A program made the position numbers and the translations under genes. Below are positions 8,486-14,721 of a stretch of DNA of 64,000 nt, piece by piece (positions within the stretch are counted from its first letter, which is position 1; every line of letters starts with the position of its first letter). The DNA lies in NCBI GenBank assembly GCA_902587165.1, contig CACIKF010000003.1, forward strand, positions 124,001 to 188,000, written 5' to 3'. The notes beneath the pieces are model-generated. The model saw only the letters and a program-made list of their open reading frames with translations. It made no database searches and was not told where the DNA came from. Source of the DNA: Puniceicoccaceae bacterium. Its GTDB lineage: Bacteria; Verrucomicrobiota; Verrucomicrobiia; Opitutales; Coraliomargaritaceae.

Positions 8486-8493
8486 AGCTAAAA

Positions 8494-8522
8494 ATTATAA
8501 AAAAAGAAACTTTTTTTATAAT
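8494..8522. repeat. Perfect A/T-rich palindrome, possible unwinding element or weak terminator
   Basis: Thirteen bases at 8494-8506 (ATTATAAAAAAAG) are perfectly complementary to 8510-8522 (CTTTTTTTATAAT) around a 3-nt centre. The arms have a single G-C pair each. The A-tract and T-tract could melt easily, as in a DNA unwinding element, and it lies 18 bp from the first DnaA box. It could instead act as a weak bidirectional terminator for the preceding operon. The sequence does not decide between these. Confidence 0.6.
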
Positions 8523-8539
8523 AATTTGAGAAGCTTGAC

Positions 8540-8624
8540 TTATTCACAGTGCAAATACGCTTAGACGAAAACCTAAATCGTTCGTTCACAGTTGCTTCGA
8601 AACTTATTCACATATTTATTCACA
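8540..8624 (+). other. Cluster of three perfect DnaA boxes (candidate replication origin or DnaA-controlled site)
   Basis: TTATTCACA, a perfect match to the DnaA consensus TTATNCACA, occurs three times on the same strand at 8540-8548, 8604-8612 and 8616-8624. The last two are 12 bp apart. A degenerate copy (TCGTTCACA) is at 8582-8590. An A/T-rich palindrome lies just upstream. The cluster is in the longest gene-free region of the window. Against a chromosomal oriC: the flanking genes converge on the site, dnaA is not in the window, and I see no obvious skew flip by eye. A DnaA titration site or DnaA-controlled promoter is therefore possible. Confidence 0.6.
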
Positions 8625-8660: not shown

Positions 8661-8722
8661 TTGACAGCGGGAAAATGTAACGCATTGTTTGACATATTCC
8701 TTCGGGAATGTGATCTTTGACA
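8661..8722 (+). repeat. Three TTGACA boxes at exact 28-bp spacing
   Basis: TTGACA occurs at 8661-8666, 8689-8694 and 8717-8722, exactly 28 bp apart. The first and third units also share an A(A/G)TGTAA element at the same offset (8674-8680 and 8730-8736), and the second has AATGTGA at 8707-8713. The middle unit contains a UUCG-capped hairpin (8695-8711). They look like iterons or phased protein-binding sites. Use of one as a -35 element is possible, but no good -10 sits 16-18 bp downstream. Confidence 0.5.
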
Positions 8723-8759
8723 GAAATGAAGTGTAAAACAAGACTGCGAAAGTAGTTAT

Positions 8760-9744
8760 GAATACCACTTCAAGATATACTCCAAGCTTAGGTTTGGAAA
8801 AAGGTCGGGATGAGCTAACGTTCCTGGCCCCTGCTGCGAGTTGCCTGTTAAGGCAGCGAGATTATCTTCGGGTGATTATATTCGGCAGGCACATGTCACC
8901 GGCTTCAACGAAAAGGTTCGTGCCTTTTCGGTTTAACACGAAATTGAGGTCTGGCGGTGAGCGGCAACTTAAAGTGATGCAGTAAAAGGCACACTAGAGT
9001 GAGAACCAGCTGCAAACCGAGTAATGCTACAAGTTCCTGTTCGGAACGAAATAGCAAACACAGTCGGTCAAAGACCGACAGTTGCTACTGTGAGTTAGTG
9101 CGGAGTAGATAACGTAGTTTGACAGTATGAACGAATAAAGTGCTGTTAGATCGTAGGGGTGTCGCAATCTATACGGGAAAAAGAACTGCGGCTTCGCGGA
9201 GTGAGCGAACCAAGTGAGAGGTGCCTGTTTACGGGTAGTGATCATGGAAACGCGATAAAATCTGAAGCGCGGGAGGCTGTAGAAAAGCCGTCCGTTTGAG
9301 ACAATAAAAGCAACTTGAGGGTTAAGAGACAAGACCCGTTGCCTAAGGCAAACGATCGATGACGTAAGAAATTGATGCTGACCTTGGGCTACAGGAACGG
9401 AAGTGGAGATCTCAATCACTACCGATCCGTGTTCGGACTGTGAGTGTCGGCAGACAAGCGCAAAACCGGGCAGAGAAGTCTCACCCAACAGAGAACCAGT
9501 GTTAAAACTGGAATCAGGTTCCGCTGTGGGACCGAAACGTATCGCAATCGTTCTTGCGGTATGACACAGCGTCGGGGAACTGGCAGCCAACAATCGCTCG
9601 ACGGGTGATGAGAGCGCCCAATGCCAGTGAATCGGGGAAAGAGAGCGTGGCGAGCTCCCATACCTCACCTTTTTATGAATCTTCAGATTCGATAATAGGT
9701 TATTTAAAAGCCCGTGATTCGGTAACGAATCACGGGCTTTTTTT
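8760..9744 (+). ncRNA. Candidate large structured non-coding RNA (about 1 kb)
   Basis: There is no credible protein gene here, but local helices are dense. They include 8842-8846/8851-8855; 8861-8866/8871-8876 capped by C(UUCG)G; 8909-8916/8923-8930; 9025-9029/9052-9056 enclosing 9033-9037/9043-9047; 9063-9069/9073-9079; and 9272-9278/9286-9293. Further on are 9310-9314/9338-9342 stacked on 9319-9322/9334-9337; 9496-9500/9507-9511; 9522-9528/9565-9571 enclosing a 10-bp stem 9538-9547/9554-9563; and 9579-9585/9622-9628 enclosing 9595-9599/9612-9616. G-U pairs (9539-9562, 9542-9559, and two in 8861-8876) and the UUCG loop fit a + strand transcript. The 5' end is uncertain (8665-8760); the 3' end is the terminator. 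I do not recognise it as RNase P, tmRNA, 6S RNA, or a group I or II intron. It resembles the giant ornate RNAs (OLE, GOLLD, ROOL) only in general character. Confidence 0.7.
9710..9744 (+). terminator. Strong rho-independent terminator (bidirectional)
   Basis: A perfect 12-bp stem (9710-9721 with 9726-9737) with a GTAA loop is followed by seven T (9738-9744) on the + strand, ending the structured RNA. On the - strand the same stem is followed by TTTT and then A/T-rich sequence, so it can also end the convergent photolyase operon, whose last gene stops at 9769. Confidence 0.93.
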
Positions 9745-11705: not shown

Positions 11706-13271
11706 TCAAGTTTTTGAGGGCATACGGCAAGCGGACACGCTACGAATTTCATTTGCAGCTTTGGTGATACCGCTGCGATCACGCTCATTGAATCGATCGA
11801 GGTTACGGAGCTGAAGTCCCATACGTTGATTTGATTTGAGAGCAACTTGGTGTCTTATCAAATAATCCCAATAGAGCGTGGTAAAGGGGCAGGCGTTTTC
11901 TCCAGTCTTTTCCTTAGGATTTTTGGGGCAATTTTTGCAGTAATTGCTCATCTTATTAATGTAATTGCCCGTGGCGATGTAGGGCTTTGAGGCCATGAGT
12001 CCACCGTCGGCGTATTGCGACATACCTAGAGTGTTAGGGAGCTCGACCCACTCAACGGCATCAACATACACAGCGAGATACCACTCGTGTAACTTCTTTG
12101 GGTCCACGCCTAGTAGGAGCGCGTAGAGCCCAGTGACCATAAGCCGCTGGATGTGGTGCGCGTAGCCGTGCTCCAGCGTTTGCCCGACGGATTGCTTGAG
12201 ACATTCGAGATCCGTATCGCCAGTCCAGTAGAAGTCGGGCAAGGGTTCCTGCGCGTCCATCTCATTGCGGTCGATGTATTCAGGCATATGCATCCAATAG
12301 ATACCGCGCACGTATTCACGCCATCCGAGAATTTGGCGAATGAAGCCCTCAACCGCAGCAAGCGGGGCGTTACCGTCTTCGTAGGCTTTTTCAGCGGCAG
12401 CGACAGCGTCGCGGGGATCAAGCAGCTTTAAGTTGAGCGACGTACTGATCAGCGAATGGTAGAGCCAGGGCTCATCAGTCCACATGGCGTCTTGATACTT
12501 ACCAAATACGGCTAGCCGATTATGAATGAAATTGCTCAGTGCTTTTTGTGCCTCTTCTGGAGTCACAGGCCAAGCAAAGGAGTCGAGCGAACCTGGATGA
12601 TCGGCGAAGCGCTCGTTGACAAGGTCGAGCACTTCACGGGTGAGCACGTCTGGTTTAAAATTAGGGCCATTGTTTGGTTCTTCGGGGCCACCCTTGCCGA
12701 AGCTGCCCCGGTTTTCTTTATCGTAGTTCCAGTCGCCGCCAGTCGGCTTGCCGTCTTCCATTAAAACGTCGAAGCGTTTACGTAGTTCACGGTAAAAGAA
12801 CTCCATACGAAGAGACTTTCGGCCTTTGGCGTATTCTTCGAAATCCTTGGCGTTGGTGTAAAAGTGTCGGTCATCACGTACTTCCAGTGGCACTTCTTCG
12901 TCGCAGCAAACTTTTTTCAAAGCTTGAAGCACACGCCATTCGCCGGGCTGGGTGACGATGACTTTTTCTGGGCTCAAGGCACGGAGGTCGACACCGAGCC
13001 GATTGGAAAGTTTATCCGACCCTTCGCCATCATCTAGCTGCGTATATTCCACCCGGATGTCCTCCGAAAGTAGCGCGTCTCTAAAGTGGCGCATACCTGA
13101 AAGGAAGATCGCGATACGCTGCTTATGTGACCAGACGTGCTTCGATTCGTCATCGACCTCGGCCATCCATACGGCATCCTGAGTGGAATCAAAGTCGTCG
13201 AAAGCAGCAGCATCACGATTAAGTTGATCGCCAAAAATGACAATTAGGTGGCGTGGTGATTTCATTTTCAT
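11706..13271 (-). CDS. Cryptochrome/photolyase family protein with Fe-S cluster (FeS-BCP, (6-4) photolyase-like)
   Basis: The 521-residue protein starts with HLIVIFGDQLN, the opening of the photolyase-related family (COG3046) that includes prokaryotic (6-4) photolyases. The C-terminal half has the four-cysteine Fe-S region: one Cys in SNYCKNCPKNP (two residues), another in ENACPFTTLYWDYL, with the family pattern of tight Cys pairs near residue 440. It contains the Gly/His segment GYAHHIQRLMV, which is conserved around the FAD and lesion. Such enzymes repair (6-4) photoproducts with blue light. It sits 19 bp downstream of a classical CPD photolyase gene, so the operon would cover both main UV lesions. 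Photoreceptor function is the main alternative. Confidence 0.88.
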   Translation of the reverse strand: MKMKSPRHLIVIFGDQLNRDAAAFDDFDSTQDAVWMAEVDDESKHVWSHKQRIAIFLSGMRHFRDALLSEDIRVEYTQLDDGEGSDKLSNRLGVDLRALSPEKVIVTQPGEWRVLQALKKVCCDEEVPLEVRDDRHFYTNAKDFEEYAKGRKSLRMEFFYRELRKRFDVLMEDGKPTGGDWNYDKENRGSFGKGGPEEPNNGPNFKPDVLTREVLDLVNERFADHPGSLDSFAWPVTPEEAQKALSNFIHNRLAVFGKYQDAMWTDEPWLYHSLISTSLNLKLLDPRDAVAAAEKAYEDGNAPLAAVEGFIRQILGWREYVRGIYWMHMPEYIDRNEMDAQEPLPDFYWTGDTDLECLKQSVGQTLEHGYAHHIQRLMVTGLYALLLGVDPKKLHEWYLAVYVDAVEWVELPNTLGMSQYADGGLMASKPYIATGNYINKMSNYCKNCPKNPKEKTGENACPFTTLYWDYLIRHQVALKSNQRMGLQLRNLDRFNERDRSGITKAANEIRSVSACRMPSKT

Positions 13272-13290
13272 AAAAGTTTACTTCTTCCAC

Positions 13291-14721
13291 CTAGGATTTA
13301 AATTGATCCAATGCAGCGAGTGCCCTTTCGCGACCTTCCTTATGATCGATGATTGGTTCGGGATAGTCTTTGCCAAGCTCGACGCCTGCATATTCGAGAA
13401 TGCCTGCGGGTGCCTCCCATGGTTCGTGGATAAATTTGCTAGGTAACTTTGCAATCTCAGGCACCCAACGCTTCACATAATCACCCTCAGCGTCGAACTT
13501 CATACCTTGGGTGATTGGATTGAAGACGCGGAAATAAGGCGCAGCGTCGGCACCACAGCCAGCACTCCATTGCCAACCGAGGGTATTACTGGCCAGATCG
13601 GCATCGACTAGCGTATCCCAAAACCAACTAGCTCCTTCGCGCCAATCTTGCAACAGATGTTTCACAAGAAGGGATGAAACAACCATGCGAACGCGATTGT
13701 GCATCCACCCCGTGGCATAAAGCTGACGCATGCCCGCATCGACAATGGGGTAACCTGTCTGCCCGCGCTGCCAGCGCTTGAGGGCATTCGAATCGGGTTG
13801 CCAAGGGAAATCGGCATACTTTTCGTGAAGCGGCGCAGCAGGCGTTTTCGGGAAGTGATAGAGCACGTTATAAGCAAACTCGCGCCAATAAATTTCCTTA
13901 GCATAAACTTGTGGTCCCTCTTTGCCAAGATCGTGCTTAGCCTTCAGTGCGTGCATGACTTGGCGCGGACCGATCAAGCCCCAATGTAAATAAGGTGAGA
14001 GGCTCGATGTGCCGTCTTCGCTCGGAATGTCACGCGCCTGGTTGTAGCCTTCGACTGCTTGACTAAGGAATTTTTCCAGCCCCTTTTGAGCGGCTGCCTC
14101 ACTGACTACCCAGTATTCGTCAAATTTACGATACCACTGCTTTTCCGGCAAGAGGCAGAGAGAATCTAAAGCCAACGTCTGCGGATAGGTGTCAGGGAAC
14201 TTAAGTGAATCAAAATCAGGTTCGGCAATCGGTTCAATCGGACGGTCTTTTACCTTTTTCCAGTAGGGCGTGTAAACCTTGTAGGGATTTCCCCCACCCG
14301 TGGCGGCGGTGTGCGGTTCGTTAAGTAAGGTGCTATTAAAACTCTCCACTTCAATACCATCCTCGCGCAATTGACGCTTGATCGAAGCATCCAACTCCCG
14401 TTGCGGCGACTCGTAACGGCGATTCCAACAAACGCGCTTCGCTCCAGTCTTTTCAATGATGTCTCTCAGTTGCCCTAGAGAGTCGCCTTCTCTTAAAACA
14501 AACTCACCCCCCTTATCTTTCAAGGTCTCACTTAGGCTCTTCAAAGCCTGATGTAGCCACCACTTCGAAGCCGCACCCGGTGCCCAATCACCTGCCTCGT
14601 CGGGTGACCAGATGAAGACAGGAATCACAGGCAAGCCTGCCTCAATAGAAGCTTTAAGGGCAGAATTATCCTTAAGGCGCAGATCCTTGCGGAACCACAA
14701 AATTGTAGGGCTTAAAGACAT
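13291..14721 (-). CDS. phrB: Deoxyribodipyrimidine photolyase, class I
   Basis: The 476-residue enzyme opens with ILWFRKDLRLKDNSAL and carries the antenna-domain WNRRYESPQRELD motif near residue 105. The C-terminal FAD and DNA-binding domain shows LSPYLHWGLIGPRQV, EIYWREFAYNVLYHFP, PIVDAGMRQLYATGWMHNRVRMVV and DADLASNTLGWQWSAGCGADAAPYFRVFNP (in parts). This is the standard class I cyclobutane-dimer photolyase. It uses FADH- to split pyrimidine dimers in visible light. It is the first gene of the leftward operon and follows a 92-bp divergent spacer shared with the nitroreductase gene. Confidence 0.95.
   Translation of the reverse strand: MSLSPTILWFRKDLRLKDNSALKASIEAGLPVIPVFIWSPDEAGDWAPGAASKWWLHQALKSLSETLKDKGGEFVLREGDSLGQLRDIIEKTGAKRVCWNRRYESPQRELDASIKRQLREDGIEVESFNSTLLNEPHTAATGGGNPYKVYTPYWKKVKDRPIEPIAEPDFDSLKFPDTYPQTLALDSLCLLPEKQWYRKFDEYWVVSEAAAQKGLEKFLSQAVEGYNQARDIPSEDGTSSLSPYLHWGLIGPRQVMHALKAKHDLGKEGPQVYAKEIYWREFAYNVLYHFPKTPAAPLHEKYADFPWQPDSNALKRWQRGQTGYPIVDAGMRQLYATGWMHNRVRMVVSSLLVKHLLQDWREGASWFWDTLVDADLASNTLGWQWSAGCGADAAPYFRVFNPITQGMKFDAEGDYVKRWVPEIAKLPSKFIHEPWEAPAGILEYAGVELGKDYPEPIIDHKEGRERALAALDQFKS

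What the first reader, a model, noticed from the sequence alone, without database searches (positions are those of the whole stretch)
8665..9744. Candidate giant structured RNA of about 1 kb in a gene-free region
Between a convergent operon pair, a stretch with no plausible protein gene contains many perfect local and nested helices and ends in a very strong intrinsic terminator. Nested pairs (for example 9522-9528/9565-9571 enclosing 9538-9547/9554-9563, and 9579-9585/9622-9628 enclosing 9595-9599/9612-9616) are not explained by chance repeats. G-U pairs and a C(UUCG)G loop set the + strand. An 8-nt long-range match also exists between 8798-8805 and 9667-9674. It has the size and density of OLE, GOLLD or ROOL-type RNAs, but I do not recognise it as any of them.
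Basis: partly seen in the sequence, partly recalled or inferred. Interest (0 to 1): 0.9.

Follow-up and report, generated by a model that had tools for sequence, protein, structure and literature searches.

The report
Known giant RNA behind DnaA boxes
The gene-free stretch encodes MISL, a known large bacterial RNA of unknown function, and its relatives carry, just upstream of it, clustered sequences like the binding sites of the replication starter DnaA, which suggests that the RNA is tied to growth or chromosome replication.

Summary
The structure is real, but the RNA is not new: 8775-9658 (+) is a full-length Rfam MISL RNA (RF03079, 350 bits against a cut-off of 275). One is a pseudoknot that the model's nested structure leaves out. 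The 8-nt long-range match is not supported.

What looks new lies upstream. Of 125 MISL genes with enough flank, 115 carry at least one TTRTTCAC/TTATTAAC box within 350 nt upstream and 86 at least two; shuffles give about 4 loci, and 1 of 133 downstream flanks has one. The same boxes precede dnaA in 34 of 36 loci from MISL-bearing genomes, so I read them as DnaA boxes. Three lie at 8540-8624. A boxA-like element, also in the two 16S leaders seen, precedes 91 of 125 genes; a terminator-like hairpin follows 120 of 133.

Best reading: MISL is an autonomous, rRNA-like transcription unit whose promoter is under DnaA control. DnaA binding, transcription and the RNA's activity are untested. GC skew does not place the gene at oriC in three of four genomes sampled.

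The parts
8490..8529 (.). A/T-rich tract upstream of the boxes; poly-A/T tracts lie at similar places in several relatives
   Evidence: sequence; upstream sequences of relatives
8540..8548 (+). TTATTCACA, DnaA-box-like site 1
   Evidence: motif assigned by its place upstream of dnaA in relatives
8604..8612 (+). TTATTCACA, DnaA-box-like site 2
8616..8624 (+). TTATTCACA, DnaA-box-like site 3 (12 bp after site 2), the promoter-proximal box; TATTCACA is invariant in the window and five aligned relatives
8661..8690 (+). putative promoter: TTGACA (8661-8666), 18-nt spacer, weak -10 TTGTTT (8685-8690). Inferred from conservation of TTGAC in relatives; the consensus scanner found no promoter here
   Evidence: negative scan
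8693..8712 (+). leader hairpin, 8 bp with C(UUCG)G loop; TTCCTTCGGG invariant in the window and five aligned relatives
8712..8725 (+). boxA-like leader element GATCTTTGACAGAA (GTTCYTTGA in 91 of 125 loci), like GTTCTTTGAAA in two 16S leaders of the order
8775..9658 (+). MISL RNA (RF03079), full-length match
9517..9533 (+). hairpin 9517-9520/9530-9533 whose loop forms the 5' side of the pseudoknot
9522..9571 (+). pseudoknot helix 9522-9527/9566-9571, with compensatory changes over 138 homologues
9579..9628 (+). helix 9579-9585/9622-9628, strongly covarying
9706..9741 (+). intrinsic terminator, 16 counted pairs and T-run
   Evidence: terminator-like hairpin follows 120 of 133 MISL genes

Best explanation
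The window holds a MISL RNA gene. It is a free-standing transcription unit: (1) an array of DnaA boxes, (2) a promoter, (3) an rRNA-type boxA leader that would let RNA polymerase escape Rho on a long untranslated RNA, (4) the 0.75-1 kb folded RNA, (5) a strong terminator. DnaA, probably in its ATP-bound form, binds the array and switches or times MISL transcription, so that the amount of RNA follows the replication or growth state of the cell. The RNA then acts in trans. Shown here: the MISL identity, the covarying helices including a pseudoknot, the conserved box array, the same boxes upstream of dnaA in relatives, the boxA-like element and the terminator. Inferred: the promoter, DnaA binding, direction of regulation, antitermination, and the trans role of the RNA.
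For: MISL: 350.1 bits, full length. Boxes: at least one in 115 of 125 upstream regions and two or more in 86 of 125, against a shuffle mean of 3.95 loci (maximum 10 in 20 rounds) and 1 of 133 downstream regions; among 54 clusters of upstream sequence (75% identity), 44 representatives have at least one box and 29 at least two. Density is 6.4 per kb in the 300 nt upstream against 0.03 per kb in the rest of the loci and 0.034-0.085 per kb in three genome samples. The same 9-mers lie within 450 nt upstream of dnaA in 34 of 36 loci from MISL-bearing genomes (20 of 22 after clustering), with 0 of 36 in a control stretch inside dnaA; canonical TTATCCACA takes the distal position in L343. Same-strand TTATTCAC doublets occur at 4 places in 10 genomes, 3 of them at MISL. 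boxA-like GTTCYTTGA: 91 of 125, shuffle mean 0.55; two of two 16S leaders seen carry GTTCTTTGAAA. Terminator-like: 120 of 133 against 17 of 133 in one mononucleotide shuffle. No neighbouring gene is common to the loci (largest cluster 36 of 146), as expected of a trans-acting RNA.
Against: Ten of 125 loci have no box, and of two second MISL copies looked at, the one in G225 (L377) has the boxA leader but no box, while that in G393 (L378) has both; so the RNA does not always need the array. In another set of 20 genomes, 9 of 13 TTATTCACA/TATTCACA doublets lie away from MISL, so doublets are not exclusive to it. The motif could belong to another regulator of dnaA that shares the sequence. I found no DnaA-box cluster near the GC-skew minima of three genomes to confirm the box at oriC. 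The dnaA loci L248 and L347 lack the motif, and dnaA was not found in the window's own genome (79% complete). The window's promoter is not seen by the consensus scan. There is no transcription or binding data.
Confidence: 0.62

Rival explanations
1. The box array is a DnaA-titration or DnaA-recharging site (like datA or DARS, recalled) that happens to sit beside MISL. MISL transcription, or its RNA, opens or closes the site, and the main job is control of free DnaA.
For: Dense box arrays away from the GC-skew minimum in three of four sampled genomes. In G000, G041, G027, G169 and G336 the only doublet found lies at MISL.
Against: In the low-GC relatives the promoter-proximal box keeps a similar place relative to TTGAC, which suggests transcription control. 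A titration site needs no conserved 0.8 kb RNA. IHF-type sites were not examined.
Confidence: 0.2
2. MISL lies at the chromosomal replication origin and the boxes are oriC.
For: Box array plus A/T-rich tract next to it. In G032 the gene lies about 0.1 Mb from the GC-skew minimum.
Against: The GC-skew minimum lies about 0.54 Mb away in G020 and 1.55 Mb away in G035. In G177 the switch from negative to positive skew lies between 1.62 and 1.90 Mb, with some noise, while MISL is at 4.39 Mb.
Confidence: 0.05
3. The repeats are sites of an OmpR/PhoB-type response regulator (11-bp direct repeats of TTCAC), for example a phosphate-starvation regulator, so MISL is a stress RNA.
For: 11 bp is the commonest spacing of same-strand TTCAC repeats (14 and 12 cases on the two strands).
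Against: TTCACM-N5-TTCACM is barely above its reversed control in 12 genomes (21 against 17 matches) and is absent from all 20 PstS-like loci fetched. The same box motif sits upstream of dnaA.
Confidence: 0.08
4. MISL works like OLE, ROOL or GOLLD as a self-assembling RNA scaffold or cage; the upstream boxes only set its expression level.
For: Size and ornate folding, pseudoknot, no common neighbour gene.
Against: No structural or oligomer data; this is an analogy only. It is compatible with the best explanation rather than excluding it.
Confidence: 0.2

Closest known systems
MISL RNA, Rfam RF03079
   Same: Full-length covariance-model match, 1-751, 350 bits against gathering score 274.6
   Different: The window member is longer (884 nt against 751 model positions). 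The box array and boxA-like leader lie outside the model, and the pseudoknot is not in the nested structure shown; whether Rfam or the original report annotates any of them elsewhere was not checked.
OLE, ROOL and GOLLD RNAs
   Same: Large, ornate bacterial RNAs; OLE, ROOL and GOLLD form homo-oligomeric RNA-only complexes (PMC12286853: title and start of abstract, passages)
   Different: None is matched in the whole-window Rfam scan. The main text of PMC12286853 has no occurrence of 'MISL'.
CcnA ncRNA of Caulobacter (PMC8959179; abstract and passages seen)
   Same: A non-coding RNA tied to replication: its gene lies at the origin, which holds DnaA boxes, and a cell-cycle regulator presumably activates it
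   Different: Another, short RNA at oriC itself, under CtrA. MISL is not at the GC-skew minimum in three of four sampled genomes; the sequences of CcnA and MISL were not compared here.
datA and DARS sites of E. coli (recalled, not looked up)
   Same: Clusters of DnaA boxes away from oriC
   Different: As far as I recall, not promoters of a large structured RNA.
rRNA operon leaders with boxA
   Same: GTTCYTTGA element upstream of a long untranslated RNA
   Different: MISL is not an rRNA, usually has AGAAC soon after boxA, and the two 16S leaders seen show no TTATTCACA doublet.

Membership tests
MISL RNA (RF03079) | score above the family's gathering threshold over the whole model | tested here: met
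   350.1 bits against 274.6, model 1-751
MISL RNA (RF03079) | conserved structure with covariation among homologues | tested here: met
   helix 9579-9585/9622-9628 96.9% paired with many exchanges over 138 sequences
MISL RNA (RF03079) | non-coding | tested here: met
   no Pfam match in any of seven overlapping ORFs of at least 50 aa
DnaA-box array | match to TTATNCACA (consensus recalled) | tested here: met
   three exact TTATTCACA at 8540-8624
DnaA-box array | same motif at the dnaA promoter | tested here: met
   34 of 36 dnaA loci from other MISL-bearing genomes, 20 of 22 after clustering; control 0 of 36. dnaA was not found in the window's own incomplete genome
DnaA-box array | bound by DnaA | not testable with these tools
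   needs EMSA, footprinting or ChIP
oriC | lies at the GC-skew minimum | tested here: not met
   0.54, 1.55 and more than 2 Mb away in three of four genomes; about 0.1 Mb in G032. Not tested in the window's own fragmented genome
Pho box (PhoB/PhoP type) | shared repeats at phosphate-uptake genes | tested here: not met
   0 of 20 PstS-like loci fetched
boxA antitermination element | sequence shared with rRNA leaders of the same lineage | tested here: met
   GTTCTTTGAAA in 2 of 2 16S leaders seen; GTTCYTTGA upstream of 91 of 125 MISL genes. The window has the variant GATCTTTGACA, and no 16S gene was found in its own genome
boxA antitermination element | binds NusB/NusE and blocks Rho | not testable with these tools
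   needs biochemistry
OLE, ROOL, GOLLD | match to those Rfam models | tested here: not met
   the whole-window Rfam scan at gathering scores gives only MISL and a tRNA

The most novel reading that the evidence does not exclude
MISL is a replication-coupled giant RNA: DnaA directly times its synthesis through a box array conserved widely in the phylum, and the RNA feeds back on replication initiation or growth. It would be the first ornate large RNA class known to me that is wired to the initiator of chromosome replication.
Probability: 0.4. Interest if true: 0.82.

Novelty: new member of a known kind. Interest (0 to 1): 0.58.

Why it matters
MISL is a large bacterial RNA class for which I found no function: in the library searched it appears only as a chemical-mapping example. 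A conserved DnaA-box array gives a concrete, testable lead to its role and predicts when it is made. It would also be a new way in which DnaA acts, through a kilobase structured RNA, in a phylum whose replication control is, to my knowledge, little studied.

Tried and rejected
New RNA class: rejected by the Rfam match. oriC: GC-skew sampling of G020, G035 and G177 puts MISL away from the minimum; G032 is close (one of 20 G035 samples was masked and dropped). oriC at the recombinase/ParA-type box cluster of G049: no skew switch there. Pho regulon: no support. Long-range 8-nt helix: no support. Common partner gene: none; the largest neighbour cluster covers 36 of 146 loci, on a crude ORF call with flanks of unequal length. 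Plasmid or phage carriage: no match to the window RNA in either collection; one exact pattern match in viral contigs (L376) lies in a 2.3-kb contig whose long ORF looks to me like an RNA-phage maturation protein (not tested) and is probably chance. Box doublets as oriC markers: TTATCCACA none in 10 genomes, TTATNCACA on one strand none in 11, convergent TTATNCACA pairs at two places, both in G020. rRNA leaders could be compared in only 2 of 19 genomes, because no 16S match was found in the other 17.

Rows dropped before counts: 21 of 146 unique MISL loci lacked enough upstream flank or a complete 5' end, and 13 of 146 lacked downstream flank or a complete 3' end. dnaA loci L242 and L243 (only 30 and 49 nt before the match) and the fragment L349 were left out of the 36; L240 had only 130 nt upstream. 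For the 138-sequence alignment 140 of 146 loci gave a distinct complete 3' domain, and L144 and L145 were left out because the anchor was misplaced.

Full report
What is there. The stretch contains a full-length Rfam MISL RNA, RF03079, at 8775-9658 on the + strand (350.1 bits; gathering score 274.6; model 1-751).

Structure. I aligned the 3' domain of 138 homologues. Helix 9579-9585/9622-9628 is 96.9% paired, with many compensatory exchanges. It is supported for 9522-9527/9566-9571: U-A 67, C-G 50 and U-G 21 at 9525/9568, A-U 121 and G-C 17 at 9526/9567. The sixth pair holds in 112 of 138; the innermost, 9528/9565, in 11 of 138. The helix crosses hairpin 9517-9520/9530-9533 of the model, so it is a pseudoknot that the nested structure shown does not hold. 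The 8-nt long-range match is not supported: it stays at 7-8 bp in L120 and L130 but over 110 loci pairs no better within than between loci.

Relatives. Rfam searches found MISL in 20 of 87 genomes of the order (16 over the cut-off) and in 31 of 387 of the phylum (28 over the cut-off); both samples were drawn from larger groups with strict filters. In the order, 19 of 44 genomes of at least 3.0 Mb have it, against 1 of 43 smaller ones, that one being the window's own incomplete genome (sizes, counted). Two genomes have two copies (G225, G393).

Upstream array. In 146 unique loci the sequence upstream of MISL varies widely (54 clusters among 125 at 75% identity), but it holds repeats of TTATTCACA, TTGTTCACA, TTATTAACA and, in many high-GC loci, GTTATTCACC, in both orientations. 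Of 125 loci with enough flank, 115 have at least one site in 350 nt, 86 at least two and 37 at least three; 1 of 133 downstream flanks has one; shuffled upstream sequences give 3.95 loci on average. Of the 54 cluster representatives, 44 have at least one and 29 at least two. Same-strand doublets of TTATTCAC occur at four places in ten genomes, three of them at MISL. In another set of 20 genomes, of 13 TTATTCACA/TATTCACA doublets 4 are at MISL and 9 are not.

What binds. The sites fit the DnaA box TTATNCACA (consensus recalled). I tested this at dnaA: in 34 of 36 dnaA loci from MISL-bearing genomes the same variants lie within 450 nt upstream, mostly near -60 and near -340, 27 of 36 within the last 110 nt; a control stretch inside dnaA gives 0 of 36. 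After clustering by upstream similarity it is 20 of 22. L248 and L347 have none. In L343 a canonical TTATCCACA takes the distal place. A convergent TTATTCACA/TTATCCACA pair also lies upstream of dnaB in G020. This makes DnaA the best candidate, but another regulator of dnaA with the same preference is not excluded. The Pho-type reading, suggested by 11-bp spacing, found no repeat at any of 20 PstS-like loci.

Not an origin. GC skew sampled along four genomes of one or two contigs puts the minimum at about 4.54 Mb in G032 (MISL 4.44), 0.90 Mb in G020 (MISL 1.44), 3.99 Mb in G035 (MISL 2.45) and, with noise, between 1.62 and 1.90 Mb in G177 (MISL 4.39). The array is therefore usually not oriC. 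I also found no dense box cluster near the minima of the first three.

Transcription unit. In the window: boxes at 8540-8624, TTGACA at 8661, a weak -10, an 8-bp UUCG hairpin at 8693-8712 and GATCTTTGACAGAA at 8712-8725; the hairpin's core (TTCCTTCGGG) and the latter block are invariant in five aligned relatives. In most relatives the block reads GTTCYTTGA (91 of 125; shuffle mean 0.55). Both 16S leaders that could be seen, in G084 and G055, carry GTTCTTTGAAA. This resembles boxA in place and sequence (boxA recalled) and suggests antitermination of a long untranslated RNA. A terminator-like hairpin follows 120 of 133 MISL genes, against 17 of 133 in one mononucleotide shuffle. No neighbouring gene is common to the loci (largest cluster 36 of 146), so the RNA most likely acts in trans.

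Results against the reading. Ten of 125 loci have no box. Of two second copies, the one in G225 has boxA but no box, the one in G393 has both. Box doublets also occur away from MISL. The consensus promoter scan found nothing in the window. There are no expression or binding data here. dnaA was not found in the window's own genome (79% complete), so the dnaA test rests on relatives.

Literature. Searches for 'MISL RNA', for 'MISL' with 'Rfam', and for two of 'MISL', 'structured RNA' and 'Verrucomicrobia' gave one relevant paper, the Ribonanza preprint PMC10925082, where MISL is a chemical-mapping example (listings; passages). Searches for 'DnaA box' with 'Verrucomicrobia' and for DnaA boxes with non-coding RNA listed nothing on this RNA (listings only). 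The paper that I recall as the likely source of the family (Weinberg et al. 2017) is not held, so I cannot say what it reports about the flanks.

Verdict. The RNA is a member of a known family. The conserved DnaA-box array, with the boxA-like leader, is the part worth following; I found no report of it in the searches named.

Noticed in passing
L377 (G225 second copy); also L126, L131, L161, L167, L215: MISL genes without DnaA boxes by the strict motif; L377, L126, L131, L161 and L167 keep a GTTCCTTGA leader. The assembly of L167 also holds L108, a copy with boxes. This may be a second, differently regulated MISL paralogue.
   Followed up: partly
L240-L247, L320-L348 (upstream of dnaA): Two conserved DnaA-box-like sites before dnaA in many of these loci, near -60 and -340. 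In L245, L246 and L247 the distal one is followed by a shared CTTGTTGGAAAGT block.
   Followed up: partly
L096 1448-1521 (G049): Three TTATTCACA plus weaker copies beside a tyrosine recombinase gene and a ParA-like ATPase gene, in a member of the window's genus in which no MISL was found; no GC-skew switch there.
   Followed up: partly
L250: Convergent TTATTCACA/TTATCCACA pair upstream of dnaB in G020.
   Followed up: no
window 11706-14721: Two adjacent photolyase-type genes on the - strand: a DPRP-family protein and a DNA photolyase.
   Followed up: no
G197:C1:1446085-1508665: A long run of PstS-like phosphate-binding domains; 43 matches in the genome, many side by side.
   Followed up: no
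window 9027-9668 (-): A 213-codon antisense open frame through the MISL 3' half, without a Pfam match; probably chance.
   Followed up: partly
L091 and L092 (G064, G078): A TTATTCACA/TATTCACA doublet about 9 kb from MISL on the same contig, between a response regulator/histidine kinase gene and a SixA-like gene (last name recalled).
   Followed up: no
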